Shown here piece by piece: positions 633 to 43,009 of a stretch of 64,000 bases of DNA. The stretch spans positions 2,282,001-2,346,000 of the forward strand of contig JAOTOL010001598.1 in NCBI GenBank assembly GCA_034440575.1, read 5' to 3'. Position 1 is the stretch's first letter. The number at the start of each line of letters is the position of its first letter. The notes under the pieces are model-generated. The model ran no database searches. It was not told the origin of the DNA and saw only the letters and a list, made by a program, of their open reading frames with translations. This DNA is from Imbricaverruca yamaguchii (taxonomy: Eukaryota; Arthropoda; Thecostraca; Neoverrucidae). A program made the translations under genes and the position numbers.

Positions 633-959
633 TGGTGGTGGTGGTGGTGGTGGTGGTGGTGGTGGTGGTGGTGGTGGTGGTGGTGGTGGTGGTGGTGGTG
701 GTGGTGGTGGTGGTGGTGGTGATGGTCGGCTGGCAGTGGTGGTGGTGGTGGTGGTGGTGGTGGTGGTGGTGGTGGTGGTGGTGGTGGTGGTGGTGGTGGT
801 GGTGGTGGTGGTGGTGGTGGTGGTGGTGGTGGTGGTGGTGGTGGTGGTGGTGGTGTGGTGGTGGTGGTGGTGGTGGTGGTGGTGGTGGTGGTGGTGGTGG
901 TGGTGGTGGTGGTGGTGGTGGTGGTGGTGGTGGTGGTGGTGGTGGTGGTGGTGGTGGTG
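633..959. repeat. (GGT)n trinucleotide microsatellite
   Basis: About 105 GGT units with interruptions at 720-736 and 853-856. Homopolymeric reading frames (poly-Gly, Val, Trp, His, Thr, Pro) on both strands are artefacts. CpG-rich sequence follows to about 1120. Confidence 0.97.
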
Positions 960-1549: not shown

Positions 1550-2330
1550 CTATTTGGTTTCTAGGATGTTCGTAAGCGATGCATACTTTAGTGCTAATTC
1601 GTTTCGCGTGATATTGCCAGTTCGACGGCGAATAAATATCATGGATGCACATTTGCGGATGGAAAGAGATACACACCCCGTCATACTTCGTTCGATGCTC
1701 TCTGAATTAAATGCATTGCTGTCTCCGCATGCTTGTGCCTCCAACATGCTACCCAGTCATCTGTATACATCCAATATTGCAATTTCAAAGAAATATGCAC
1801 CATCGAGTAGGAAGATGTCATTTATAGGCACCAAAGGTAAGTCATGAGACAACATACTCCCATGGGGGAGACCCTGTTCTTGGGTAGCCACCGATGAAGA
1901 AACATTGCTTCACCGGACAGCGATGGATTCAGATTACAGAACGTTCTGCAGGAGCCCCACCATTCGGCACCGGATTCCAAGGTTGTGTAATTTGACGAGG
2001 AGTACCTTACGATGAACGGCATCGGATGCGGCTTTCAAGTCGAGGGAGAAAGCTACGGTAATTTCCCTCTCCTTGAAACCAATCTGGATGTCGCTGATCA
2101 TGTTCATTAGATTGTTAGTAGTTGTGCTAAGGGCAGATTGAAAACCATTCTGAGACGGCGAAAACATACGGTTTGATTCCAAATATGTTCTCAGGCTGAC
2201 ATTAACAATTCTTTCGAATAAGTTGCGAGCACAACTGATGAGGGAAATAGCTCTATAGCTTCCGGGATTCATGAGTGGTCTGCTGGGTTTCAGGCTGGGT
2301 ATATGATGCAAGCCAGACGCCGTTCGTCAG
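1550..2330 (-). pseudogene. Non-LTR retrotransposon (LINE) reverse transcriptase remnant
   Basis: Minus-strand frames preserve reverse transcriptase blocks. SYRAISLISCARNLFERIV corresponds to the PISLLS...K..E motif. QNGFQSALSTTTNNL corresponds to Q.GF....ST. FSLDLKAASDAVHRKVLLVK corresponds to the LDLKAAFDTV.R..LL.K block with the first catalytic Asp region. Then, after a frameshift near 1990, a GSPHG-like block (equivalent of G.PQGS) occurs. The FADD-type catalytic motif is not intact. Frameshifts and stops show it is dead, and both ends of the element are missing. The style is Jockey/CR1-like, but the clade is uncertain. Confidence 0.82.
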
Positions 2331-3942
2331 AGTGCCCGGTCAGGATATCATTAAAGACGTCCATTCGTTGGTTTTTGTGATGGATCTGACATGTTGGAAA
2401 ACAAGAAGAAGCAATATTACCAGGGCATACCGACGTATTTCAATATAGGAATCATCATGAATGCTCAGCCGGATGGAGTGTAAAAATAGAAGTATTTAGG
2501 AAAGAGAGGCTTATGGTCTGTGTGACACGCTGATACCAGCCATAATTTTGGTGAAGTCTTTCCATATGCGGCGGTGGAGCTGCTCGTATGTTATTCGTGC
2601 ACGTGTCGTGCAGGTGATCATCCCGCCGTGCTAACCCTCGCTGGTGCATGCACCATTCTGGAAACTCATACGCATCAGTAACCCCGAGCCCCGCACTGAC
2701 CGGTATGGCGGGGATGAGCTAGAGAAGACGAGTAGGATGTCGTGGTCTTGCTACCACTCAGCATGTCATGTTGGGCTTTACATGCACTAATGCCTGGCGG
2801 TAAGTCGCTGATCGGATGCTTACTGAGCGTGGTCGGTGCGCTTTTATGAGCTTTTTGCTTAAAAAATGCTAGTTTGAAGGCTATCAAGTAGCAGCAATAT
2901 TAATGATCCTGGCACTATCGCTATCGCTAATGTTGGTGCGCAATCGCTCATGGATTAGGAAGTGAATTGTCGTAGCCTAATTATAGAATTGGTTGTATTA
3001 TTGCTGAATTGATTGTATTATTGCTGAATTCAACATAGGTAACGGCATCTGATGTGTGACCTTCAGTGTTGAATTGATCTCAGCCGTTTCTGGCATGTAT
3101 GGTGTCTGGGCAAGCGATTCACGACGGAATTTTCACCGCAAATGTCGATCGGTGTAAGCTGCACTCTGATAGCTGTGCACTTACTGCGCATTGGTCTCAG
3201 CTCCACGTGTAGCCGTAGATGCACAAGCAAATCGGCATTGGTGCAAATCAACATTTTCCTCACTTATTTGATGACGAAACACCCTTCGTCTCATAAACAT
3301 GTCGGAATTTGAGAGAAGTGTTTTCGAAAAGTATTTTCCTTAGCCACGAGGCGTGTTAGTAGCACATGCCGATATCGGTAGCTGGGGCGCAAGGGCACGG
3401 CCCCGCTTCTCGTGACCGGAACAGTGCTCTGTACACGGGGCGAGACGCAGCGGAAGAGCCTGTGCATCATCGCTATGGCGGTGAATCTGAGAGTAAGCGC
3501 GTTAGCAGGGTTGTCCCACGAGGAGTCGAAAAATGATATGTAAGCGGTGTACATGCAGTGAGCGTGATGTTTTCAGGTAAATTTTGTTTTTTAGTTCGCA
3601 ACCTCTTATTCAGGGAATGCAAACTAGCTGAAACCTGATGTGATTGGCAAGGCCAATTTTCAAAGTAGCTTATTTCTATGCACCGCGGACAGCACAAATG
3701 CTAAATCGTCCAAAAATGGATCAGGCAGTTGTTGTTCTGCTCATTTCTTCTACGCCACTGCTCTTCATATGCTGTTTGCTGACACCTCTTGAATCTGTAT
3801 CTCCTTCCTCTGCCACATTTTGCATACCTCACCAATACATGTCAAATCCAGTTGTATTCCATGTATAAATAAATATATAAATATATACATACGTATGAAT
3901 AAATGCATACACACACACTCACATACACCCATACATACATAT

Positions 3943-17639: not shown

Positions 17640-17753
17640 CTACAACACTTGAAAGTTCTGGTAGCGGTAGTCGAAGTCGGAGCTAATGCTGTGCCGAGCC
17701 GTCGGTCCGCTGCTCTGCTGTGATTGGTTCATCGCGTTGATATGACTGCTCAC
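17640..17753 (-). CDS. Otx: Otx terminal coding exon 6: Otx tail
   Basis: Encodes 37 residues, [10 protein letters not shown] through [13 protein letters not shown], then TAG at 17642-17640. The D-Y-R/K-x-x-x-FQVL ending corresponds to the conserved Otx C-terminal tail (DYKDQ...WKFQVL in vertebrates), although the tryptophan is replaced. The acceptor is GTGCCGTTGCAG (AG at 17755-17754), and the first base is in phase 0 with exon 5. The exon is short, and an automatic predictor could miss it by reading through exon 5. The 3' UTR should continue to lower coordinates. I did not find a convincing polyadenylation site close by. Confidence 0.85.
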   Translation of the reverse strand: MSSHINAMNQSQQSSGPTARHSISSDFDYRYQNFQVL

Positions 17754-20700
17754 CTGCAACGGCACGCGACGTGATAACAGCGTGGCGACTGGGCGACTGG
17801 GCGACACAGACGCCGACGAGGCGCCACTAACGGGGAAACCGCCACACAGATTGGCGGGCCGGGCACGCGCCGCTTTACAGTGCGACGCTTTCCTCGCAGA
17901 CGCTTCTGCCAGTTTCTGAACCACCGCATCGGGAGCAGGCGTGTCATGGTGCGATGAATGCATCGCTGCATTTGTGCCGGGAGTGCAGATGCGAATGACA
18001 TGTGGACATGTGGATGAGCATGTGGATTGGCTGGCCATGTGCGTGGGTGGGTTGGGTGTTTGCTGAGCCGCTGACAGCAGAACAGGCACTTCTCAAGACA
18101 TTACTCAGTCCACGCATCTCTCTGGAGTTTACGGGAGCCGTGTCGCAGGCCCAGCAGGACTGCAAGCCTCCCACTAAAGTGTACACTACGACTGTCACAT
18201 CAAACATGCTATTTTAGATAATTTGCAATCTTTAAACATGCGTACAAGGCATATACATATGATGGTACTCATCAGAAGAATCATTTGGGTGCGTCTCCTT
18301 TTCATATGTGTTGTTGGGCGAATAAGAGGCATTTTTGACCTCTTGCGAGCTTAGCAGATACAAATCCCCTATAATTAATTAGGGTTGAAATTCTTCTGAA
18401 AGCTAAGTTAGCACAACCAACAAACCCATCATCCGGGAGGGGGAGAAATGAACCAATTAGTTGGTAGTGGTTCACCCGAAAGTATACAAAAGAACTTCCA
18501 ACGACTATGTTCAATAATTATTGCATATGTGGAAATAAATAAAATATATATTTTGTAAATAAAATATTTTATTTTAAAAATAATCGTATCATTTACCACG
18601 TCTCGAAAAGGTGGTAAAGCATGGAGAGCCAGAGGGAGTGAATGAGTGCAACTTAGCACGACAGCATTCTGCCGTCCGTACTCCGACGCGCAGCCGAGCC
18701 CTGACTCGCGGCCGCTCCGCCTGCTGACCTGCGGGTTGATCTGGCCGTGCGAGTTGAGGTGGTACTCCATGTTGCCGTAGTAGCCGCTGTAGTTGGCGTA
18801 GGGGTTGGCCTGGTTGGTCTGGTAGGCCGTCCTGTCCATGACCGTCTGGCCGGGCACCAGGTCGCCCATGGGGGCCAGCGAGGCGGCCGGGTTCCAGATC
18901 GTGTTGTACACGCCGCCGTAGCTCTGGGTGGAGAGAGAGGGGAGGGCTGAAGTTGGCTGCCACACTCGGAAGAAGGTGAACACTGTCAGCAGACTGGCGG
19001 ATCGAGAGCTGGACAAATCCCAGGTCAACACGATCAATTGTATGTCATCTGAACCTGCAGTCGCACTTTCTGTGATCAATGCAAATTTGTATTTGAAGCG
19101 AATAAAGAGACAATTAACTTGCGCAAGCTGGAGCCGTCAGTGAGGCTAGGACCTGGTGCGGGGTAGTGTCGGTGTTGACCCCTTACCTGGTGCGGGGTGG
19201 TGTCGGTGTTGACCTCTCACCTGGTGCGGAGTGCGGGGCGGGTGGTGCCGGTGCTGGCCTCTCACCTGGTGCGGGGCGGGTGGTGCCGGTGTTGACCTCT
19301 CACCTGGTGCGGGGCGGGTGGTGCCGGTGCTGGCCTCTCACCTGGTGCGGGGCGGGTGGTGTCGGTGTTGACCTCTCACCTGGTGCGGGGTGGTGCCGGT
19401 GCTGGCCTCTCACCTGGTGCGGGGTGGTGCCGGTGCTGGCCTCTCACCTGGTGCGGGGTGGTGCCGGTGTTGACCTCTCACCTGGTGCGGGGGGGTGGTG
19501 TCGGTGCTGGCCTCTCACCTGGTGCGGGGTGTGGTGGTGCCGGTGCTGGCCTCTCACCTGGTGCGGGGGGTGGTGTCGGTGCTGGCCTCTCACCTGGTGC
19601 GGGGCGGGTGGTGCCGGTGCTGACCTCTCACCTGGTGCGGGGTGGTGCCGGTGCTGGCCTCTCACCTGGTGCGGGGTGGTGGACGGTGTGCTGATGGCCG
19701 GAGCCGCGGAGCAGGTGACCGGCGGCGAGTAGGGCGAGTCTCGCTGAGCGCCGGCCGGCGGTGACGGGGTACCCACGGCCGGGGTCGGGGTCACCACAGC
19801 GGCGCTCACCGGCGCAGCTGTGGTCGGCGGCGTGCGCGTGCGCGGCTTGGGCTTGGGCTTTGGCTCAGCTGGAGCCCCGTTGGTGCTCGTCTGCTTGGCT
19901 TGCTGCCTGATTTTGGCGCGCCGGTTCTTGAACCACACCTGAGGGAGACGAGGGGCGACCGTGGTCATTGATAGTCGGCCACTGCGCTCGTATGTGGAAC
20001 AGCGTGGGCGTTTTCCGATCTGAAGTGAAGAATAGTGCGTCAAGCAAGGACTGCTGCGTGTTCTTGGCTCCTGGACGTGATCAAGCTTGACAAGCAGCTG
20101 TTCTAATCAGATGAGATGGTCAACTTTATCCCCGTCACACGCATTAATACATCATGCAAATCTTGATACATCCTACTGAATCGCACAGTGCCGCGAAGCC
20201 GGAAGCCTTCTGGTCCACAACTGGATGGAGTTGAATGGGATGGAATAGAAAGTCCGCAGGTGAATGGAATGAGGATTTACGCTGAAAATAGCATTTCCAT
20301 AGTCCTTGAAACTGCGCAATAATTTAAAATTATGTAATACATTTCGTGCACACTGGATGAGCTATGTTGAGTGCACACTGGATGAGTTATTCTGGCGGTG
20401 TTCTTTCAGCCACAGAAGAACCATATCCGACAATCTGCAACACCGCTCATTTGGATCTATTGTACCCGCTCCTCGGCAACTCCCACCAGCTGAATCATCC
20501 TCTGGTTCCACCATCACACCGGCTTTGGCGCCTGGTGAGCCCCCCTCCCCCTCCCCGCTCTGACGACGACATGGCGAGCCATCTGTCAGACCAGTAGCAG
20601 CCAGACGGAGGAGCCGACGGCTACAATGAGGCGGGCGATATTCGCCGGCACGTCTCTGGGCCGAGTTTCGCGCCGCGCCGCGCCACTCATCACCTGGACC

Positions 20701-23700: not shown

Positions 23701-24270
23701 GGGCAGCCCGCACTGACCCATGTCCTGTTCAGACGACCCACGCTGACCTATCGCCAGCATTGGTGACCTACATTCACCTACCATCAGCATTGTTGACGAA
23801 CATTGACCATCATCAGCATTGTTGACCTTCATTGACCTGTCATCAGCATTGGTGTCCTACGTCGACCTGTCCTCAGTGTTTGTGACATGTTCGACCAATC
23901 ATTAGCATTGGTGACCTGTACTGACTTGTCATCAGCACTGGTAACCTGCAATGATCTATGCTGAGCATTGATGACCTGCACTGGCCATGCTCGGCGCCGG
24001 AGACGCGTACTGACCTGGACGCGAGACTCGGGCAAGTTGATTTTCATGGCGACCTCTTCACGCATGAAGATGTCCGGATAGCGCGTCTTCTGGAACAGCG
24101 CCTCCAGTATGTCCAGCTGCTGGCGGGTGAACGTGGTGCGCTCGCGACGCTGCTTGCGGGCGTTTCCGGGTCCGGCTGCGGCAACAGGAGAGGCGCGTTA
24201 CAATTGTGCGGCCGGCGCTGACGTCGGCCTGGTGCCGACACTGACGGCCAGCGGCAGCGAGTACACAACA

Positions 24271-30300: not shown

Positions 30301-33300
30301 ATGCCTGTCTGGTCTGTCACTACTGCACTTCTGGGTTGGCACTGGCGTTCGGAAGCATTACAGAGCTGATGAGAAGGTATTTCTCCACATGAAAGCTGTG
30401 GCTATTTGACTGTTGGAACAGTGGATTTGGGTTTCTGCCCTGGTTGATGTCAATTGACGATGAGCAGACAGCCATCGGAAGAAAATATCGGGACAGTGGG
30501 TGAAGATAATTGAATAAGGTAAAAACAGCCTCCTGGTCCCCGATACTCGTGAAATGATAAACAAAATAAGTGAACAAATTTAAGAGAACTTTCTTTTTGT
30601 TCAGTTTCTTGTACCTTCAACAAGTGTTTACCTTTATATATCGGCTCAAGATTGCACAGTACGACCTACGGATTAGTCAGGTAAGTTTTAGTCGCGTTAA
30701 TGTGCAGGCATCCCCAGAAGAGAGACACTAATTTTAATTGTTCCGCAGCCAATTTGAAATAAACCACATGAGCCTGGTCCATGCTATTTTTGAGATTGTT
30801 AATGTTTCGCTAAGCGATTATATTTTCCTAGTTTTGGCAGCGAAAAATAGCCTGCAACGAGGCCCGGACCAAACCAAGCCACGGGAGGGAATAACAAGAA
30901 GTGGGAACATTCAATGACGAGATTGGACACAAGGACGGGAAACGTTCCAAACCCATCCAAACTACAGAAAACGACGACTGCCCGGATAGCATGTGGAGCC
31001 TGGCTGCGGCGGCGCTGTACACACGGAGGGACCACGACTAAAACCGTCACGAACGTGGCGCCACCACACCAGACGCTACACCGAATATGAAGACGGCGGC
31101 GCGTCCACCGTTCAGTGTGACACGGATGAACATAGGCGTGGGCACATCGCCTACTGTGGAACTGTGAAGCTGAGTGCATCAGTCTTTCCTGTTCCAGTTG
31201 TGTTCAATTATAACGTGGTACCACGACATTGGTGTTGCAATAGGAGGTGACTGTGGTGCATGTACTCACTATCCCGATTTAGTACGCGCATTGTGCATTT
31301 TACCCATTCAAGGATTTGAAATGGCATGCATGGGTGAACCCGATTTACAGAGGCTGCAGCCATGTTCCGAGACATACATCAATTGTATGGGTTTCAATTT
31401 TACGCTCACAATTATTCTGGGATCACACAGAATACAGAAGTCTGCAGAAGGCCGACGGCAGCACGACTCGGCAGGACTCAAATAATGCTTCCACACAAGC
31501 GTGAGTAATTTATCACTAAAGCCATACGGGATAAGTGGCATTGAAGCACCAAAACGGTGAGGAGAAACAGTAGCGAAGCGCCAGAGACACCAGGGAGACA
31601 GCACTGAAGCCCCACTATGGGACAGTGTTAGCAGGTAAGAGTCCCGAATTCCAGATGGAGGGATGGTTGTGGACGGCATCCGGCGAGTTGTCTCCCAACT
31701 GCTTTTCGAATATGTATTTCGATAAAATGTACCCAAATGAGAGGATACAAGAGCTTCTGTGCTCACTTATCTGCATCCAATTCATCATAAAAATTACAGC
31801 TAACCATTGGTCGACGGTATGAATCTGATTAAAGAGAAATGTGCAGTAACAGCCACGAAGGACATGAAAGGAAATTTCCTCATGAGATCGATTATATATT
31901 TTTGTTTGCCATCGAGAGACGGCCAATGCCGGCAAATGCCATCCAATCATAACATCCAACGTTGGATCCTCTCCTATTTTGGTATTTAAAAGTATTTTGC
32001 ACACGAGTGTGTGCAAAATACTTTTAAATAAAGCAAAAGCTAAAACCCTAAAACGTCTGAGAGAGAAAGCGAACAAATGGATTACACACACACACATCAA
32101 ATGTCATTGACCTCGTTGACTTTGGCTAACTGAAGCAACGGGCAAAACACGTTTCTGACAAATTTCAAAAGTGATAAAGAACAAACAAGGCTGAACTGGT
32201 AGCCGTCCAGTGCTCTCCATACCAGGTCATATGTCACGAGCACACAATGCAACCGATGCCTACGTAAAGAAGTGGACGATGGCCGAGAAGGCTACTGTTG
32301 AAAATTTAGCAGCTGGCGTTGCCAAAATATATTTCGTGTTCCAATGCAGATACATAATTTTGCTTCGGAGAGAATTTGTGTGCAACTACACAAGTCGGCG
32401 CTGCAGACGAGGCATGAGTAATAGTCATGTCGTGCAGACAAGGCATGGTAATGATAATATCGTCATGCTGTGCGTTTAGTCATGCCGTCATACAGAGCGA
32501 GAAGAGAGAGAGAGAGAGAGAAAGAGAGAGGGGGGGGTGAGAGAGATAGAGGGTGAAAGAGAGTGTGAGATAGAAGGTGAGATAGAGGGTGAGATAGAGG
32601 GTGAGATAGAGGGTGAGAGAGCGGGTGAGAGAGAAAGCGAGGGAGATAGGGGGTTAGAGAGAGGGTGAGAGAGACGGTGAGAGATAAAGGGTGTGAGAGG
32701 GAGATAGAGGGTGAGATATAGACGGTGATAGAGAGAGGGTGATATAGAGAGGGTGATAGAGAGAGGGTGAGAGAGATAGGGTGAGAGAGATAGGGTGAGA
32801 TAGAGAGGGTGAGAGAGATAGGGTGAGAGATAGGGTGAGAGACATAGGGTGAGGGAGATAGAGGGTGAGAGAGATGGGGTGAGAGGGGGTGAGAGAGAGG
32901 GTGAGAGAGAGGGTGAGATAGAGGGTGAGAGAGAGGGTGAGGGGGAGAGAGAGAGAGACGTAGAGGCATAGAGGAATGGAGAAATGGAGGAATAGAGGAA
33001 TAGAGGAATAGAGGCATAGAGGCATAGTGGCAGAGAGATACACAGAGAGAGAGAAAGAGATATAGAGGCAGAGAGACTGCGAGGGCTCGCCGCCGGTAGC
33101 GACGCTGTCCGGGCCGCTTACCGGTCAGTGTCATCCACTCACCCGCGCCGTAAGGGACGCCCGGCGGGAACGCCTCGGACATCATGACCGGGTAGGCGGG
33201 CCGAGAGACGGCGTAGCCGGGCAGCATGCCGGCCGTGGCGCCCTGGCCGTGCGCCGACGTGCCGAACGGCGGGAACGCCATGGCGCTGCCGAGAGAGAAG

Positions 33301-36300
33301 GGTGGTCAGGTGAGGGGTCACACGGCGGGAACGCTGCCGAGAGAGAAGGGTGGTCAGGTGAGGGGTCACACGTCACACGGCGGGAAACGCTGCCGAGAGA
33401 GAAGGGCGGTCAGGTGAGGGGTACGTCACACGGCGGGAACGTCATGGCGCTGCCGAGAGAGAAGGGTGGTCAGGAGAGGGGTCACACGTCACACGACAGG
33501 AACACCATGGCGCTGCCGAGAGAGAAGGGTGGTCAGGAGAGGGGTCACACGGCGGGAACGTCATGGCGCTGCCGAGAGAGAAGGGTGGTCAGGTGAGGGG
33601 TCACACGGCGGGAACGCTGCCGAGAGAGAAGGGCGGTCAGGAGAGGGGTCACACGTCACACGACAGGAACACCATGGCGCTGCCGAGAGAGAAGGGTGGT
33701 CAGGTGAGGGGTCACACGTCACACGGCGGGAACGCCATGGCGCTGCCGAGAGAGAAGGGTGGTCAGGAGAGGGGTCACACGGCGGGAACGCTGCCGAGAG
33801 AGAAGGGCGGTCAGGAGAGGGGTCACACGTCACACGGCGGGAACGCCATGGCGCTGCCGAGAGAGAAGGGTGGTCAGGTGAGGGGTCACACGTCACACGG
33901 CGGGAACGCCATGGCGCTGCCGAGAGAAGGGTGGTCAGGTGAGGGGTCACACGGCGGGAACGCCATGGCGCTGCCGAGAGAGAAGGGTGGTCAGGTGAGG
34001 GGTCACACGTCACACGGCGGGAACGTCATGGCGCTGCCGAGAGAGAAGGGTGGTCAGGTGAGGCGTCACACGGCGGGAACGTCATGGCGCTGCGAACAAG
34101 ACGGGGGTCACGGGGTGGGGCCGTGCAGAGTGAGGGGAATGTAGTAGCAGCGCGGGGTTGACAGTGGTCAAACGCGCGTGATGGAGCGTCCAGCCGGGCC
34201 GGTCACGCCTCAGCGCACATGCATCTGCAGCGCACCCATACCACGCCGCCGAACACACGGGCATTTCCCATCCATCCCCATATCAGAAGCTCATGTCATC
34301 CTTCATCCACAGAAAATCCTGGCTTTAACAAAGAGATACCTGCGGCGCCAGAGTGCCGTCGAGATGATTCATTCATTGCAGAGTGCAATGTTACGTCGGT
34401 TAAACTAGACCAGCGCACCTAAGCGGAGAGGACAGGCCGCCGCCACAGTCCACCTACCGGACGGCACGGGGCGCACCGGCTGCCGCGAATTGGCTCCGGT
34501 TTGGCCGGCGCGGTGATATCATCGGCAGGGACCGTGTTCCTGCAATGATTTACGGCCGGCCGGCGGCGGCGGCCGACATTGCCGACGCGGCGGGCCGGCC
34601 GCAGCGGCGCCGGGCCGACGGACGAGCCGGCGAGACGCGGCGACGGCGCGTCACGTCGTCACGCGTCACGACGGCCCGCTCGTCTCGGCACGAGCTCTGT
34701 GACGGCGGCCGCCGCCGAACCAGCGCGCCGCCCGCCGGCCGCGGCGCGCTCGTCGACAGAAGCGGCGTGGAGAGACTGACCGCGGCGATGTCGGCCCAGA
34801 CCGGGCGTCGGCGCCGACTCTGCCGACGCGCCGCGGGCGCGCTAACTAACACGACGGCGGCGCGGCCGGGCCAAACTCGGCGCGGCCGGGCCCAACTCGG
34901 CGCGGCCGGGCCCAACTTGGCACGGCCGGGCCAAACTTGGCGCGGCCGGGCCAAACTCGGCGCGGCCGGGCCCAACTCGGCGCGGCCGGGCCCAACTCGG
35001 CGCGGCCGGGCCCAACTCGGCGCGGCCGGGCCCAACTCGGCACGGCCGGGCCCAACTCGGCACGGCCGGGCCCAACTCGGCACGGCCGGGCCCAACTCGG
35101 CACGGCCGGGCCCAACGCCGGACTCGGCGCGGCCGGGCCCAACTCGGCCGGCCGGGCCCAACTCGGCACGTCGCGGGCCCAACTCGGCACGGCCGGGCCC
35201 AACTCGGCACGGCCGGGCCCAACTCGGCACGGCCGGGCCCAACTCGGCACGGCCGGGCCCAACTCGGCACGGCCGGGCCCAACTCGGCACGGCCGGGCCC
35301 AACTCGGCACGGCCGGGCCCAACTCGGCGCGGCCGGGCCCAACTCGGCGCGGCCGGGCCAAACCCGGGCCAAACTCGGCCGGGCCAACGGCCGGGCCCAA
35401 CTCGGCACGGCCGGGCCCAACTCGGCACGGCCGGGCCCAACTCGGCACGGCCGGGCCCAACTCGGCACGGCCGGGCCCAACTCGTCGCGGCCCGCTCTCA
35501 CGCCGTGCTCGCCGATCGCTCAACGGCACTTCGGAACCGCGCGAAACCGAATCGAATGCGCTCGTGTCGACCACCGGGAGCGTGGATTTTTCACCCGAGC
35601 AGGAACACATGTCCACCACTCGCGCTAATGTGGCAGACGCGAGCTTGCCGCCCTAGCGTGACTCCCTACAAGCAGCTCACTGCAAGCTAACGTGACAGAT
35701 GTGAGCTTGCCGCCCTAGCGTGACTCCTTACAAGCTGCAATTTACAGCATGTCGCAATATTAGAGCAGAAACACATCAACCTCTTAATGGCTAATCAACC
35801 TCACAGTGGATAACGTACAGCATGTACAAGCGCGCGACGACAGTGCGATTAATGGCTGATTTATCTTCATTATTCTAACCGATCGAAGCAGTACATTGGA
35901 AGCATTGCAAACATTATCAATGCATCGGACATCGAAATTATCGTCGGGTGGGAATAGATTGTATCTACTGAGTGTTTGAAATACTCGATGCTGGGTAATT
36001 GGCAGCCGGGCGAGATAATGTGACGCCAGGTCTCATCGCTGTCATCTGGCTATCAGATATAAATCGCCCAGCTGTTACTACTAATGTAATGCAAAACAAC
36101 CGGCTATTCCAGAGCATTGGATAGGATCCAACCATAGCGTGGGCTCATCCGCTAACTATTATAGAGAAACGTGTTTTTGTGCAGAGGCAATTAAACAGAA
36201 GTGCAGCACACCAATCAGCTTCACAACCCAATAATCGTTACCCAATACAGCTTATCGGATGCGCCGTACCACCAGATGCTATGCGAGTGCGAGGAGCGCG

Positions 36301-37564
36301 CGTATTAGGATTTCAGATCCATTCCTTCTCATTAGCGCTCGAAACGGGGCGATGGCCAGAACGTTCCATGTTCCGGACCTTAGCCGATCATACACGTTGA
36401 AATGGTCACTGCGAATATTGCCAAGTGCGCAGGAGAAGGTAACCCTTGGACCGCTTGTGCGACCGCCAAAGTACTTGACGTTGCAGCTGAGATTCGTGCA
36501 ATGTCACATCCATCACCCATGACGAAGCCTACGAACGTGGTGCGAAATGCCGCAAACATTTCGCGCAGACCGGAGGAGCGGCACTGCGTCTCCGTCACGA
36601 CATCCTGTCGCACTGCGTCTCCGTCATGGCTTCTGCACACCGCAGCCGAATATCTTGTTGCCAAGCCGACTTCCGCGACGTCGAGGCGATGCACAGGCAC
36701 AGGCCGACTGCGGCACGACTAAGTTCGCCGTGTGTACGGCTGCTGACCGGACAAAAGTCAACTGTCACGAACTGTGACAGCCATCGAGCTCGGAGTCCCC
36801 CAACATCTGGCAATCGCGGCATCTGCCCGACACTCGCGGCACCTGTCAGCGCATCTGCCCGGCACTCGTGACCTGTCCAGTAGCGTAATTCCGGGCACTC
36901 ATCGCCTGGTACTCACTGACCGGCTGGTGCTCGCCGTTGAAGAAGAAGAAAAAAACAATATCTGTCCGAAGGTGAAGGGCATACTCCGGCACTCGCGGCC
37001 CACCCAACACCCGACACCCACCACGGCGACACCAACTCCCTGCATAACACCCGGCACCCACCTCGGCACTCGCGGCCTGCTAAATATCTGACATCCACCC
37101 CGGCATTCACGGCCTGCCTAACATCCGATGCCCACCCCGGTACTCACGGCCCGCATAACGCCCGGCACCCACTCCCTGCATAATATCCGGCACCCACCCA
37201 GCACAACGGCCTGCCTAACATCCGACACCCACCGCGGCATTCACGGCCTGCCTAACATCCGACAACCACCGCGGCACTAGCGGCCTGCGCAACGCCCGAC
37301 AACGACCCCGGCACTCGCGGTCTGCCTAACACCCGACACCCAGCCCGGCACAACGGCCTGCCTAACATCCGACACCCACCCCGGCACTCGCGGCCGCCGG
37401 CGCCGCGCCGACACCTCCAAGTTCCTCAGCTGCAGCGACGACACGGCGTCTGCTGCCTCTCACCTGGACATGGACCTGTAGCCGGGCTCCCTCTTGACGT
37501 CGGCGTAGGCCATGTCGTCGCACGGAGTGAGCTCGCCGTGCGCTCCCAGCCGGTTGGGACTCAT
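17640..37564 (-). CDS. Otx: Otx/orthodenticle homeobox gene, six coding exons (gene-level entry)
   Basis: Sequence-specific transcription factor of the Otx (paired-like, K50) class. In animals these nuclear proteins pattern the anterior head and brain and the eyes, and K50 homeodomains bind TAATCC-type sites. Spliced coding order on the minus strand is 37564-37464, 33285-33143 (or -33122), 24175-24015, 19938-19666, 18923-18729 and 17753-17640. Every junction is GT-AG and phases match (2, 1, 0, 0, 0), giving about 328 aa or 335 aa. The homeodomain starts about 9 residues into the third exon and is interrupted after Q46, the family's usual intron position. The C-terminal half carries an IWNPAAS block like the IWSPAS of Otx proteins, and the last residues are FQVL, the Otx tail. 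The exon model is my own reading by eye, without transcript data. Identity as Otx is very secure. The two N-terminal exons are less certain because that part is poorly conserved. Confidence 0.93.
17754..18728 (-). other. Otx intron 5
   Basis: Intron of 975 bp with GTCAGC at its start and TTGCAG at its end. It contains an AT-rich stretch (about 18530-18600) and no minisatellite, unlike introns 1 to 4. Confidence 0.8.
18729..18923 (-). CDS. Otx: Otx coding exon 5: C-terminal transactivation region
   Basis: Encodes 65 residues from [20 protein letters not shown] to [11 protein letters not shown], phase 0 at both ends. [10 protein letters not shown] followed by MDR, then a Tyr-rich stretch ([13 protein letters not shown]), lines up with the IWSPAS...MQRSY...YFGxMD region of Otx proteins. 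The acceptor is CTCTCTCTCCACCCAG (AG at 18925-18924) and the donor is CCGCAG|GTCAGC (GT at 18728-18727). Without splicing the frame would stay open past the donor and end in AT-rich low-complexity residues. A minus-strand AATAAA-like hexamer lies near 18570, so an intronic polyadenylation isoform is possible but unsupported. Confidence 0.9.
19150..19666 (-). repeat. Minisatellite of duplicated Otx exon 4 splice donors
   Basis: About 15 head-to-tail units of 33-45 bp, modal period 34. On the minus strand each unit reads roughly CCACCCCGCACCAG|GTGAGAG followed by GCCAGCACCGGCACCA-like spacer, so each holds the last codons of exon 4 plus a consensus 5' splice site. Exon-end positions with CAG|GTRAG are 19666 (the genuine border), 19632, 19594, 19558, 19519, 19482, 19448, 19414, 19380, 19342, 19304, 19266, 19221 and 19187. 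A fifteenth unit near 19153 has GTCC instead. The array fills most of the 742-bp intron 4. Confidence 0.92.
19666..19938 (-). CDS. Otx: Otx coding exon 4: homeodomain helix 3 and linker
   Basis: Begins [13 protein letters not shown], completing recognition helix 3 with the class-defining lysine 50 and N51. Residue 56 is isoleucine where Otx proteins usually have cysteine. A Pro/Ala/Thr-rich linker follows, with a [11 protein letters not shown] basic stretch and SPYSPPVT, ending STTPHQ: 91 codons, phase 0 at both ends. The acceptor is CTCCCTCAG (AG at 19940-19939) and the donor is CACCAG|GTGAGAG (GT at 19665-19664). The last codons and the donor are the first unit of a tandem array of near-identical donors. 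The reading frame stays open through the array to a TGA at 19446-19444. In-frame use of array donors ending at 19594, 19558 or 19519 would lengthen the protein by 24, 36 or 49 residues. Confidence 0.93.
20700..21165. repeat. 64-bp minisatellite, about 7 copies, Otx intron 3
   Basis: The unit runs from GAGAGGTTGGTCTGTGTAT through CTGTACCGAGGTCCCGGGC. Copies start near 20757, 20821, 20886, 20950, 21014 and 21079, with partial ends. Units are highly similar, so amplification is recent. Because 64 is not a multiple of three, long open frames on both strands show 64-residue periodicity. I regard these as artefacts. Confidence 0.88.
21165..21345. repeat. Short-period GACTGATCTG/GACAGACGGG repeats
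   Basis: Degenerate units of about 25 bp such as CAGACTGATCTGCCTGTTTG and GACGGGCATGTCTGTTT follow the 64-bp array. They lie in Otx intron 3. No coding signal is seen. Confidence 0.5.
21595..21880. repeat. Minisatellite of GACGAGTCCAGTGGACGGG-type units
   Basis: Imperfect units of roughly 20 and 40 bp built from GAGTCCGGCAGACGAGTCCA and ATGGACGGGTTTGACCGAC. It lies in Otx intron 3 and ends in CpG-rich sequence at 21880-22200. Confidence 0.75.
22210..23545. other. Otx intron 3, unique sequence
   Basis: AT-richer unique DNA. No exon, RNA gene or transposon was recognised. Confidence 0.5.
23550..24010. repeat. Degenerate repeat downstream of the homeobox exon donor
   Basis: Loosely periodic sequence (roughly 25-35 nt) of the form GCATTGGTGACCTGYACTGACCTGTCATCA on the plus strand. 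On the minus strand it contains repeated AGGTCAGT or AGGTCAAT motifs resembling the real exon 3 donor CAG|GTCAGT at 24015. It also includes a short run of CCTGA units at 23565-23585. It lies in intron 3, directly against the exon. Confidence 0.6.
24015..24175 (-). CDS. Otx: Otx coding exon 3: homeodomain residues 1-46
   Basis: Encodes [15 protein letters not shown], then helices 1 and 2 of the homeodomain, ending [10 protein letters not shown]. The motif [20 protein letters not shown] is diagnostic of the Otx class, and [13 protein letters not shown] is the family's N-terminal arm. The acceptor is TGTTGCCGCAG (AG at 24177-24176). The donor is CGCGTCCAG|GTCAGT (GT at 24014-24013). The exon ends in phase 0 after homeodomain Q46, the conserved intron position in Otx genes. 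No frameshift or stop is present, and conservation is very high, so this is a functional exon. Degenerate repeats with donor-like AGGTCAGT or AGGTCAAT motifs lie directly downstream in the intron. Confidence 0.97.
24277..24311. repeat. (CA)n microsatellite, Otx intron 2
   Basis: Uninterrupted CA dinucleotide run of about 17 units, roughly 100 bp upstream (on the minus strand) of the homeobox exon acceptor. CpG-rich sequence follows at 24320-24640. Confidence 0.95.
24985..25345. repeat. Minisatellite of GGCTATGAAGCCAGCTCG units, Otx intron 2
   Basis: Imperfect units of 26-36 bp built from GCTATGACGGCTATGAAGCC and AGCTCGGCGATGACGGTTAT, about 12 copies. Confidence 0.8.
26230..27570. repeat. 1.3-kb composite minisatellite, 24- and 42-bp units, Otx intron 2
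   Basis: Two interleaved units: a 24-mer like CACCGACACAGGGACCGGAC plus CCGC, and a 42-mer that adds GGCCGGTCACCGGCGCCAGGTCTGT. Unit lengths are multiples of three, so stop-free frames of about 460 codons occur on both strands (26233-27621 plus, 26181-27557 minus). They have no homology I recognise. A decayed tail with GAACCTGAACCGGAACTCG repeats continues to about 27800. I treat it as intronic satellite and not as protein. Confidence 0.88.
27800..30100. other. Otx intron 2, unique sequence
   Basis: No exon, RNA gene or transposon was recognised here. Two CpG-rich patches (28720-29060, 29150-29640) lack splice-bounded frames of known type. A near-duplicate of ACATCAATGAG occurs at 29103-29130. 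Confidence 0.5.
30150..30330. repeat. 42-bp minisatellite, about 4 copies, Otx intron 2
   Basis: The unit is roughly GTGCCCCCAGTGTCTGTCTG followed by TTCTGCCACTAGTGCCTGT. It lies in intron 2 and is flanked by unique AT-richer sequence. Confidence 0.85.
31983..32030. repeat. Perfect 22-bp hairpin with a 4-nt loop
   Basis: Arm 31983-32004 (TATTTAAAAGTATTTTGCAC plus AC) is exactly reverse-complementary to 32009-32030, with GAGT between them. It could be a foldback insertion, a MITE relic or a structured RNA. It lies in Otx intron 2. Confidence 0.9.
32490..33070. repeat. 580-bp polypurine/polypyrimidine tract beside Otx exon 2
   Basis: GA-rich plus strand built from GAGAGAGGGTGAGATAGAGG-type units, grading to GAGGAATAGAGGCATAGAGG. 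On the transcribed strand it is a continuous CT-rich tract starting about 50 nt after the exon 2 donor. Mirror-repeat purine tracts of this kind can form triplex DNA, and pyrimidine tracts bind splicing regulators such as PTB. Both consequences here are inference. Confidence 0.9.
33122..33285 (-). CDS. Otx: Otx coding exon 2, with two possible donors
   Basis: The acceptor is a polypyrimidine run ending CTCTCTCGGCAG (AG at 33287-33286). The exon then reads C GCC ATG GCG TTC CCG and encodes [15 protein letters not shown] through [17 protein letters not shown]. Two donors are both consistent with the homeobox exon: GCGG|GTGAGT (exon end 33143) and GACCG|GTAAGC (exon end 33122). Both leave one base G, which joins CC of the next exon as alanine. 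The 21-nt difference adds GEWMTLT. Pro/Gly/Tyr-rich composition before the homeodomain resembles other arthropod Otd N-termini, but only loosely. An ATG lies four bases inside the exon, so translation could also begin here if a promoter in intron 1 were used. A tandem array of the acceptor region begins immediately upstream, and a long polypyrimidine tract lies just after the donor. Confidence 0.8.
33286..34090 (-). repeat. Minisatellite of duplicated Otx exon 2 splice acceptors
   Basis: About 14 tandem units, mostly near 61 bp with shorter forms of about 47-50 bp. On the minus strand each unit carries CTCACCTGACCACC (branch-point-like), then CCTTCTCTCTCGGCAG, then the exon 2 start C GCC ATG GCG TTC CCG CCG or a shortened form. 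Copies begin near 33333, 33389, 33449, 33510, 33566, 33616, 33678, 33739, 33789, 33850, 33912, 33969 and 34029, beyond the genuine acceptor at 33286. Using the nearest copy (exon start 33333) would meet an in-frame TGA within five codons. Confidence 0.92.
34430..35500. repeat. 20-bp GC-rich minisatellite, about 30 copies, Otx intron 1
   Basis: From about 34850 the unit CGCGGCCGGGCCCAACTCGG (or CACGG variant) repeats about 30 times with a few rearranged units near 35110-35170 and 35360-35395. Sequence 34430-34850 before it is CpG-rich and without an exon I can identify. The NotI/NaeI-like CpG content suggests an unmethylated island in intron 1. Long open frames (up to 381 codons on the plus strand, 296 on the minus) are repeat artefacts. 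Confidence 0.88.
35630..35735. repeat. Two-copy direct repeat, Otx intron 1
   Basis: GAGCTTGCCGCCCTAGCGTG and the following ACTCCYTACAAGC occur at about 35640 and again at about 35703, a period near 63 bp. Confidence 0.85.
36980..37400. repeat. Degenerate 37-38-bp minisatellite next to Otx exon 1
   Basis: About 10 imperfect units like CGGCCTGCCTAACATCCGAC followed by ACCCACCCCGGCACTCG. It lies in intron 1, ending about 65 bp before the exon 1 donor. A shorter relative (GGCATCTGCCCGGCACTCG-like) runs back to about 36810. I do not see a copy of the donor itself in the units. Confidence 0.8.
37464..37564 (-). CDS. Otx: Otx coding exon 1 (start codon)
   Basis: Encodes 33 residues beginning [17 protein letters not shown] and ending GYRSMS, plus two bases (AG) of the next codon. 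The ATG is at 37564-37562. An in-frame TGA eight codons upstream (37588-37586) shows that no longer open frame exists without another splice. The donor is CCAG followed by GTGAGAGG (GT at 37463-37462), a strong 5' splice site. The leftover AG joins the leading C of exon 2 to make a serine codon, so the phase agrees. No recognised domain lies here. Otx N-termini diverge quickly, so assignment rests on position, phase and signals. A CpG-rich block lies directly upstream, as expected of a developmental gene's 5' end. Non-coding 5' exons could exist further upstream. Confidence 0.7.
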
Positions 37565-41264: not shown

Positions 41265-42545
41265 CTCGACGGGGTGCCACGGCAGCAGCGAGAGTTGCGG
41301 GAGAGGGACAGGCAGCCCCGCTCTCACTCCTCACTGGTGAGGTGCCGCGGCAGCAGCGAGTTCGCGGGAGAGGGGCAGGCAGCCCCGCTCTCACTCCTCA
41401 CTGGTGAGGTGCCGCGGCAGCAGCGAGTGTCGCGAGAGAGGGGCAGGCAGCCCCGCTCTCACTCCTCACTGGTGAGGTGCCGCGGCAGCAGCGAGTGTCG
41501 CGAGAGAGGGGCAGGCAGCCCCGCTCTCACTCCTCACTGGTGAGGTCCGCGGAAGAGAGGGAAGGCAGCCCCGCTCTCACCCTCACTGGTGAGGTGCCGC
41601 GGCAGCAGCGAGTGCGGGAGAGGGGCAGAGCCCCGCTCTCCTCCTCACTGGTGAGGTCCGCGGCAGCAGCGAGAGTCGGGAGGGGGGGGCAGGCAGCCCC
41701 GCTCTCACTCCTCACTGGTGAGGTGCCGCGGCAGCAGCGAGAGTTGCGGGAGAGGGACAGGCAGCCCCGCTCTCACTCCTCACTGGTGAGGTGCCGCGGC
41801 AGCAGCGAGTGTCGCGGGAGAGGGGCAGGCAGCCCCGCTCTCACTCCTCACTGGTGAGGTGCCGCGGCAGCAGCGAGAGTTGCGGGAGAGGGACAGGCAG
41901 CCCCGCTCTCACTCCTCACTGGTGAGGTGCCGCGGCAGCAGCGAGTGTCGCGAGAGAGGGACAGGCAGCCCCGCTCTCACTCCTCACTGGTGAGGTGCCG
42001 CGGCAGCAGCGAGAGTTGCGGGAGAGGGGCAGGCAGCCCCGCTCTCACTCCTCACTGGTGAGGTGCCGCGGCAGCAGCGAGAGTCGCGGGAGAGGGGCAG
42101 GCAGCCCCGCTCTCACTCCTCACTGGTGGGGTGCCGCGGCAGCAGCGAGTGTCGCAAGAGAGGAACAGGCAGAGCCGCTCTCACTCCTCACTGGTGAGGT
42201 GCCGCGGCAGCAGCGAGAGTCACGGGAGAGGAGGAGGCAGCCCCGCTCTCACTCCTCACTGGTGAGGTGCCGCGGCAGCAGCGAGTGTCGCAAGAGAGGA
42301 ACAGGCAGCCCCGCTCTCACTCCTCACTGGTGAGGTGCCGCGGCAGCAGCGAGTGTCGCGAGAGAGGGGCAGGCAGAGCCGCTCTCACTCCTCACTGGTG
42401 AGGTGCCGCGGCAGCAGCGAGAGTCGCGGGAGAGGGGCAGGCAGCCCCGCTCTCACTCCTCACTGGTGAGGTGCCGCGGCAGCAGCGAGAGTCACGGGAG
42501 AGGAGGAGGCAGCCCTGCTCTCGCTCCTCATCGGTGTGGTGCCGC
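41265..42545. repeat. 68-bp minisatellite, about 18 copies
   Basis: The unit is AGGTGCCGCGGCAGCAGCGA, then GAGTCGCGGGAGAGGGGCAG, then GCAGCCCCGCTCTCACTCCT, then CACTGGTG. Some units have internal deletions near 41540-41700. Each contains CTG|GTGAGGT, a donor-like sequence on the plus strand. Frames with AAARVAGEGQAAPLSLLTGE-type repeats are artefacts. Confidence 0.92.
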
Positions 42546-43009
42546 GGCACACCAGAGTAATGGGACCTCTGCTCTGCTCATCCCCACAACTGACCGATGA
42601 GCAGACTGGCTTCTTCAGTGTCGTCCATCAGGAAGACCGACGGGGTTGGAGTTCTTATATGTTGTATGCACACGACACACAAATAGACATATCAAATTAT
42701 TATGTGCTATATCCGCACGGTAGATGGAGATGGAGAGACAGATGCGGATGACAGACAGATGCAGATTGAGAGACAGATGTTCCTTTCAGCCACATGCAAT
42801 TGACGAACCTATGGGGAGACCGAGCTCCCTGTGCCACATCGTCACGGTAGGCCGGCGGAAAGGCAGAGGGATTCTGAGTCACATCCCCACGACTGATGGG
42901 CTCGTGAAGCTGGTGAACTCCACCGTGGACGTACAGAAATACAGAGAGCACCTACTAGTGGAGGTCAGGAAGCGCTGGGTGAGCAACGCATCGCCACGGA
43001 GGAATGCAT

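What the first reader, a model, noticed from the sequence alone, without database searches (positions are those of the whole stretch)
33286..34090. Splice-acceptor minisatellite: 14 tandem copies of the Otx exon 2 3' splice site
Every unit contains a branch-point-like CTCACCTGAC, the pyrimidine tract, CGGCAG and the exon's first bases including an ATG. It mirrors the donor array in exon 4 of the same gene. Use of the nearest extra acceptor (33333) would create a premature stop, so the cell must pick the most 3' copy or tolerate NMD isoforms.
Basis: partly seen in the sequence, partly recalled or inferred. Interest (0 to 1): 0.9.

Follow-up and report, generated by a model that had tools for sequence, protein, structure and literature searches.

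The report
Tandem copies of a splice site
In a barnacle's Otx gene the end of one intron and the first letters of the next exon are copied 14 times in a row, giving the cell many near-identical places to cut; the same happens at other exon edges in this repeat-rich genome, so it is a member of a known oddity rather than a one-off device.

Summary
The array is real. On the minus strand of a barnacle Otx gene, 14 units of 48-63 bp (33286-34089) each carry a branch-point-like CTGAC, a pyrimidine tract, CGGCAG and 11-19 nt of exon 2; a diverged 15th acceptor lies at 34090. Barnacle relatives show that exon 1 is coding and place the real acceptor at 33286. All 14 upstream acceptors would put a stop or frameshift into the exon-1 frame. 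Twelve score the same as the real one and none has a usable donor, so exon definition from exon 2's own donor most likely selects the exon-attached copy (inferred; no RNA data). Such structures are known from amphioxus as "mirages". It is not unique: exon 4 has 13 identical donors in tandem, and arrays span exon edges in other homeobox genes of this genome. Overall 7 of 38 homology-anchored boundaries lie in an array, about what random placement gives where tandem repeats fill 14-19% of DNA. Array units show no enrichment for splice motifs in a test of limited power. It is a boundary-spanning minisatellite of a known kind, here in an arthropod and apparently common, tolerated rather than specialised. 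A regulatory role is possible but unshown.

The parts
37464..37564 (-). Otx exon 1, coding from ATG at 37564 ([33 protein letters not shown]), donor CAG|GTGAGAGG, phase 2
   Evidence: tblastn of the Pollicipes N-terminus 70% identity, E 5e-12; sequence; joins in frame to exon 2
34090..34140 (-). outermost, diverged acceptor (GTTCGCAG|CGCCATGACG); its intron tail still aligns with the unit tail; ancestral or decayed copy
33286..34089 (-). 14 tandem units (48-63 bp), each 11-19 nt of exon-2 start followed by a 35-44 nt intron tail ending CGGCAG
33286..33333 (-). last unit (48 bp, no ATG); its CGGCAG is the authentic 3' splice site; branch-point-like A (CTGAC) at 33306, 20 nt upstream of the last intron base
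   Evidence: branch point is a motif match only
33143..33285 (-). Otx exon 2 (SAMAFPPFG...VPYGA), donor CGG|GTGAGT at 33142
   Evidence: protein alignment with barnacle relatives
24015..24175 (-). Otx exon 3 (homeodomain first part)
19666..19938 (-). Otx exon 4; authentic donor CACCAG|GTGAGAGG at 19666/19665
19151..19681 (-). exon 4 donor array, 34-38 bp units, 15 CAGGT of which 13 (the real one included) read CACCAG|GTGAGAGG
18729..18923 (-). Otx exon 5
17640..17753 (-). Otx exon 6, ends QNFQVL stop

Best explanation
The array is a minisatellite that grew by tandem duplication across the intron 1 / exon 2 boundary (a 'mirage'). The first duplication copied the intron's 3' end plus up to 19 nt of exon 2; later multi-unit duplications (63+63+48 bp) expanded and homogenised it, the real acceptor included. 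The spliceosome uses the exon-attached copy because only there does a complete exon body with its own donor follow at a normal distance (exon of 143 nt, against 191-947 nt for the decoys, which have no donor of their own). The same rule would pick the first donor of the exon 4 array. The array is tolerated, not required: this genome is dense in minisatellites, and some of them sit on exon edges. Shown: anatomy, reading-frame consequences, equal predicted strength, absence of decoy donors, other examples in the genome, rate compatible with random placement. Inferred: the duplication history, exon definition as the selecting rule, near-neutrality.
For: Unit anatomy and higher-order period. Real acceptor placed by conserved SAMAFPPFG and a coding exon 1. 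Array acceptors rank 1-13, 15 and 17 of 182 AGs in intron 1 and 12 decoys tie exactly with the real site; best donor inside any unit 2.5 bits against 6.7-10.7 for the gene's five donors (matrices recalled, not trained here). 2 of 10 Otx junctions lie in arrays, circular-shift expectation 1.87, P(>=2)=0.54. Splice-like motifs are not enriched in 59 arrays of 130 kb: donor 3, acceptor 3, expected 2.95 each. Boundary arrays in other homeobox genes. Amphioxus precedents in which the array is said not to disturb splicing (passages). In vitro, beta-globin transcripts with a duplicated 3' splice site whose upstream copy keeps 14, 55 or 205 nt of exon were spliced only to the distal site, though very inefficiently (passages).
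Against: No transcript, no second individual and no second assembly were available, so neither actual splicing nor copy-number variation is shown. Equal local score of acceptors says nothing about exonic enhancers. The motif test has limited power: it flags the exon 4 donor array, but flags the exon 2 array only for a donor-like match on the opposite strand and not for its acceptor (p 0.08). Tolerance of two arrays in an early developmental transcription factor may hide a small cost or a use. The paper notes earlier reports that exon length next to the upstream site affects the choice (it cites Reed and Maniatis 1986, which I did not read).
Confidence: 0.72

Rival explanations
1. A functional splicing rheostat: decoy acceptors (and donors in exon 4) divert a fraction of Otx transcripts into premature-stop forms, so array length tunes Otx level; CU-rich tails could also bind PTB-like repressors.
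For: All 14 upstream acceptors give a stop or frameshift for the exon-1 frame; 12 decoys equal the real site in local score; two arrays in one regulator; the Otx paralog also has donor copies at exons 2 and 4.
Against: Number of Otx boundary arrays equals random expectation; other genes have them too at a similar rate; published amphioxus cases report normal mRNA (passages). PTB binding is recalled motif knowledge, untested.
Confidence: 0.12
2. Splice junctions are preferred seeds of tandem duplication in this genome (for example because AG|GT and pyrimidine tracts promote slippage), so arrays are generated at junctions more often than elsewhere.
For: Pattern CTCACCTGACN{5,30}CGGCAG, whose first eight letters are the reverse complement of the donor CAGGTGAG, hit 136 times against 14 for the reversed control, several runs of them in arrays; further junction arrays in other genes.
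Against: Array units of 130 kb are not enriched for donor or acceptor motifs (limited power); junction coverage 7 of 38 matches background repeat coverage 14-19%. The pattern count is confounded by real exons and by within-array repetition.
Confidence: 0.1
3. Assembly artefact: repeat copies inflated or collapsed, or not present in vivo.
For: Tandem arrays are error-prone to assemble; one assembly only.
Against: Most unit variants differ from each other (two identical pairs among 14); similar arrays with different units occur on other contigs.
Confidence: 0.05

Closest known systems
Amphioxus 'mirages' (minisatellites spanning intron-exon boundaries: Adh3, globin BflGb6 and BflGb9, PGBD5, troponin C)
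   Same: Tandem units holding an exon edge and the adjacent intron end with its splice signal; 5' or 3' boundaries; homogenised inside, diverged at the edge; decoy sites present (passages).
   Different: Arthropod host; long arrays at several loci (14 units, 15, about 22 and 41 donors) against 6 and 3 units in the two BflGb6 haplotypes; two in one gene; found in several homeobox genes. Amphioxus cases had RNA and polymorphism evidence, absent here.
Engineered tandem 3' splice sites (beta-globin duplications, Reed and Maniatis 1986, known here only as a citation; reused in PMC5389562)
   Same: Identical competing acceptors with a short piece of exon after the upstream copy; the distal site used in the 2016 experiments (passages).
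   Different: Man-made, two copies, in vitro; here 15 natural copies, no splicing data.
Human internal tandem repeats at exon-intron boundaries in segmental duplications (PMC2812944)
   Same: Minisatellite expansion, in some cases at an exon-intron boundary, changing gene structure or proposed to make introns (passages).
   Different: Units average 30 bp x 4; half of the variable repeats lie in coding sequence; recent paralogs.
NAGNAG tandem acceptors (recalled)
   Same: Competing adjacent acceptors.
   Different: 3 nt apart and one polypyrimidine tract; here each copy is a full site 48-63 nt apart.

Membership tests
Mirage (boundary-spanning minisatellite) | tandem repeat unit contains the exon edge plus adjacent intron end | tested here: met
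Mirage (boundary-spanning minisatellite) | unit retains AG or GT splice signal in many copies | tested here: met
   15 of 15 acceptors end in CAG, 14 of 15 in CGGCAG
Mirage (boundary-spanning minisatellite) | internal homogenisation with diverged outer copy | tested here: met
   outermost acceptor diverged; units 0.968 mean identity
Mirage (boundary-spanning minisatellite) | regular mRNA splicing in spite of the array | not testable with these tools
   no transcript data; the relatives' proteins P0001-P0003 lack any insert at either site, P0004 ends before the second
Mirage (boundary-spanning minisatellite) | length instability between alleles or cells | not testable with these tools
   single assembly; only indirect sign is the multi-unit period
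Regulated alternative 3' splice site | more than one acceptor used in transcripts | not testable with these tools
   no RNA
New intron by tandem duplication | unit supplies both an acceptor and a usable donor | tested here: not met
   best donor in any unit 2.5 bits (recalled matrix)

The most novel reading that the evidence does not exclude
In this barnacle about one exon boundary in six lies inside a minisatellite that multiplies its splice site, so accurate splicing depends genome-wide on choosing the exon-attached copy among identical ones, and array length in genes such as Otx is a heritable, fast-mutating dial on productive splicing.
Probability: 0.15. Interest if true: 0.88.

Novelty: new member of a known kind. 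Interest (0 to 1): 0.55.

Why it matters
Runs of 10 to 40 near-identical acceptors or donors at a known exon are a natural version of the classical duplicated-splice-site experiment. They let one ask, in ordinary genes, whether position, exon length or order of transcription decides among equal sites. In the acceptor array the copy expected to be used is the last transcribed, in the donor array the first; a first-come rule predicts the wrong acceptor, exon definition predicts both. If the rate seen here holds, barnacles would join amphioxus as an animal lineage with such boundary arrays in many genes. That bears on intron gain and on gene annotation, since gene finders can pick the wrong copy.

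Tried and rejected
Considered and rejected or lowered: (1) splice sites as preferred seeds of arrays, because 59 arrays in 130 kb show no motif enrichment (limited power). (2) ATG in exon 2 as the start codon, which would make extra acceptors harmless 5' UTR extensions; I held this at first, then dropped it because relatives and the window have a coding exon 1. The exon 2 ATG could still serve as a downstream start. (3) Units as mini-exons: no usable donors. (4) CTCACCTGAC as branch point: 5 of 14 units have CTCTCCTGAC, so CTGAC is the better candidate. (5) Exon 1 donor array: the degenerate array at 36986-37395 starts 68 nt inside the intron and does not span the junction. Led nowhere: six donor-motif arrays chosen hits were checked for a coding exon at the first donor; two look coding by eye (L011, L012), four are unclear; Pfam on four of the six reading frames gave nothing above cut-off (one weak CCDC92 match, E 0.15, for L012). 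Paper searches showed me no barnacle or other arthropod report of boundary minisatellites; I saw listings only, opened six papers for passages, did not open the two insect genome papers listed, and the library is open-licence PMC text. Canestro 2002 is not held. Not obtained: genome-wide count of tandem donors (pattern CAGGTGAGN{20,50}CAGGTGAG did not complete).
Full report
What was checked. The finding's interval holds a minisatellite (33266-34093, period 63, score 860; overlapping row of period 174, score 1097). One hundred dinucleotide shuffles reach at most 63. Read on the minus strand it consists of 14 units of 48-63 bp between 15 acceptors. Each unit starts with 11-19 nt of exon 2 (CGCCATGGCGTTCCCGCCG, variants of it, or a shorter form) and ends with an intron tail such as CTGACCACCCTTCTCTCTCGGCAG. 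CTGAC is in 14 of 14 units, CTCACCTGAC in 9, the ATG in 10, CGGCAG in 14. The acceptor 23-mer of the real site recurs in 8 of the 14 upstream acceptors. The outermost acceptor at 34090 is diverged but its tail still aligns with the others.

The gene and the organism. The predicted protein without exon 1 is 84% identical to Pollicipes pollicipes OTX2-like isoform X2 and 75% to Amphibalanus amphitrite OTX2; Pfam finds one homeodomain. So the window comes from a barnacle related to Pollicipes; the species is not known. It lies in an assembly of 767 Mb in 1430 contigs. The four barnacle relatives begin MSP... and run through ...S(A/P)MAFP. The matching exon 1 lies at 37564-37464 and joins exon 2 at 33285 in phase 2; the six exons give a complete 328-aa frame. 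That supports 33286/33285 as the real acceptor and 19666/19665 as the real exon 4 donor, since relatives that cover these places have no insert there.

Consequences of other choices. With exon 1 entering in frame, 13 of 14 upstream acceptors give a stop inside the extension and one (33390) a frameshift stop in exon 2. For the exon 4 donor array, three of 14 alternatives would give an in-frame insert of 24, 36 or 49 aa with the normal C-terminus (donors 19594, 19558, 19519); three give a frameshift and eight a stop in the extension. By consensus matrices recalled from general knowledge, array acceptors take ranks 1-13, 15 and 17 of 182 AGs in intron 1, with 12 decoys tying the real site; 12 of 14 alternative donors of exon 4 tie with the real one, one scores higher and one is not among the 22 best. 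No unit of the acceptor array has a donor above 2.6 bits.

Mechanism (inferred). Local strength cannot decide among equal sites. A decoy acceptor has no donor of its own, so the next usable downstream donor is that of exon 2, giving exons of 191 to 947 nt against 143 nt for the attached copy. Exon definition therefore favours the attached copy, and equally the first donor of exon 4. [quoted passage not shown] Here the decoys keep 11-19 nt.

How special is it? In 130 contiguous kb around the gene (window plus L016-L022), tandem repeats of period >=10 and at least 2.5 copies cover 18.7% and 59 non-redundant arrays were counted. Within Otx, introns are 30% repeat and exons 3.7%. Two of 10 junctions are spanned; circular shifts give 1.87 on average and at least two in 54% of 3514 shifts. 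Consensus units are not enriched for donors or acceptors: 3 and 3 of 59 at p<=0.05, expected 2.95 each. This test is weak for acceptors: the exon 2 array itself reaches only p 0.08 as an acceptor, and is flagged for a donor-like match on its other strand.

Other genes. A search of the same genome with an Otx-paralog protein gave 52 matches, 20 of them as loci L029-L048, three of those (L030, L037, L041) being the window's own gene. Boundaries below are placed by homology of the protein, not by transcripts. Of 11 homeodomain donors in them (after the VQ or equivalent codons: L029, L033, L034, L038, L039, L040, L042, L043, L044, L045, L046) one, L046, is spanned: 11 copies of 91 bp, each repeating the end of the homeodomain exon. 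In the Otx paralog on contig C1180 the exon 4 donor, taken to be the first of 41 CAGGTRAG copies, lies in an array. Its exon 2 donor has an array of copies (23 CAGGTRAG sites in the locus, the real one included) that begins 183 nt downstream, so not contiguous. No array spans its exon 2, 3 and 4 acceptors. The homeobox family search listed 119 matches (150 of 193 candidates scored). Tally: Otx 2 of 10, homeodomain donors 4 of 23, the other five paralog junctions 1 of 5; together 7 of 38 (8 with the non-contiguous one). That is close to the repeat coverage of 14-19%. Left out of the tally because the array was seen first: a Pax3/7-like gene on C959 whose second homeodomain exon has an acceptor array (33 bp x 11.6) and a small donor array (76 bp x 3; L049; gene name by eye), and the loci L009-L015 chosen for a donor-like motif. 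The sample is small and drawn from one gene class.

Known counterparts. Passages of PMC3087553 and PMC3902484 describe 'mirages' in amphioxus: minisatellite-like duplications of intron-exon boundaries at either end of an exon, with homogenised inside and excluded edges, that are said not to disturb regular splicing. The original Adh paper is not held. The anatomical features tested here are met; splicing and polymorphism could not be tested. In the main texts of two barnacle genome papers, searched for terms only, 'tandem' and 'satellite' do not occur; the Pollicipes paper says that nearly all repeats found were classed as simple or low-complexity. My paper searches (listings) showed no arthropod case.

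Verdict. The interest lies in the generality and in the natural test of splice-site choice that it offers.

Noticed in passing
L049 nt 216-598 and 708-938 (G000:C959:129700-132700): Pax3/7-like homeobox gene: second homeodomain exon has an acceptor array (33 bp x 11.6) directly before it and a small donor array (76 bp x 3) at its other end.
   Followed up: partly
L031 nt 1658-2800 and L035 nt 1773-3138 (positions on the reverse strand of the loci; contig C1180): Otx paralog of the same genome has donor-copy arrays at exon 2 (46 bp x 22, separated by 183 nt) and exon 4 (41 CAGGTRAG), the latter at the same exon as the window gene's donor array; shared origin or independent is open. The 183-nt gap looks by eye like a tRNA-derived insert.
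   Followed up: partly
L046, L052, L058, L061: Homeodomain exons of other genes whose donor is repeated about 7 to 15 times in tandem.
   Followed up: partly
window 36986-37395: Degenerate 37-bp array starting 68 nt inside intron 1 after the exon 1 donor; some units contain donor-like GGCCGTGAGTA.
   Followed up: partly
window 41273-42549: 68-bp unit x 19 array with a donor-like CACCAGTGAGGAG in most units, upstream of exon 1 on the gene strand; could mark a 5' UTR exon edge.
   Followed up: no
window 1934-2326 (minus): Open frame resembling a non-LTR retrotransposon reverse transcriptase fragment (recognised by eye, not searched).
   Followed up: no
window 633-959: (TGG)n run of about 109 copies, 96% matches.
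   Followed up: no
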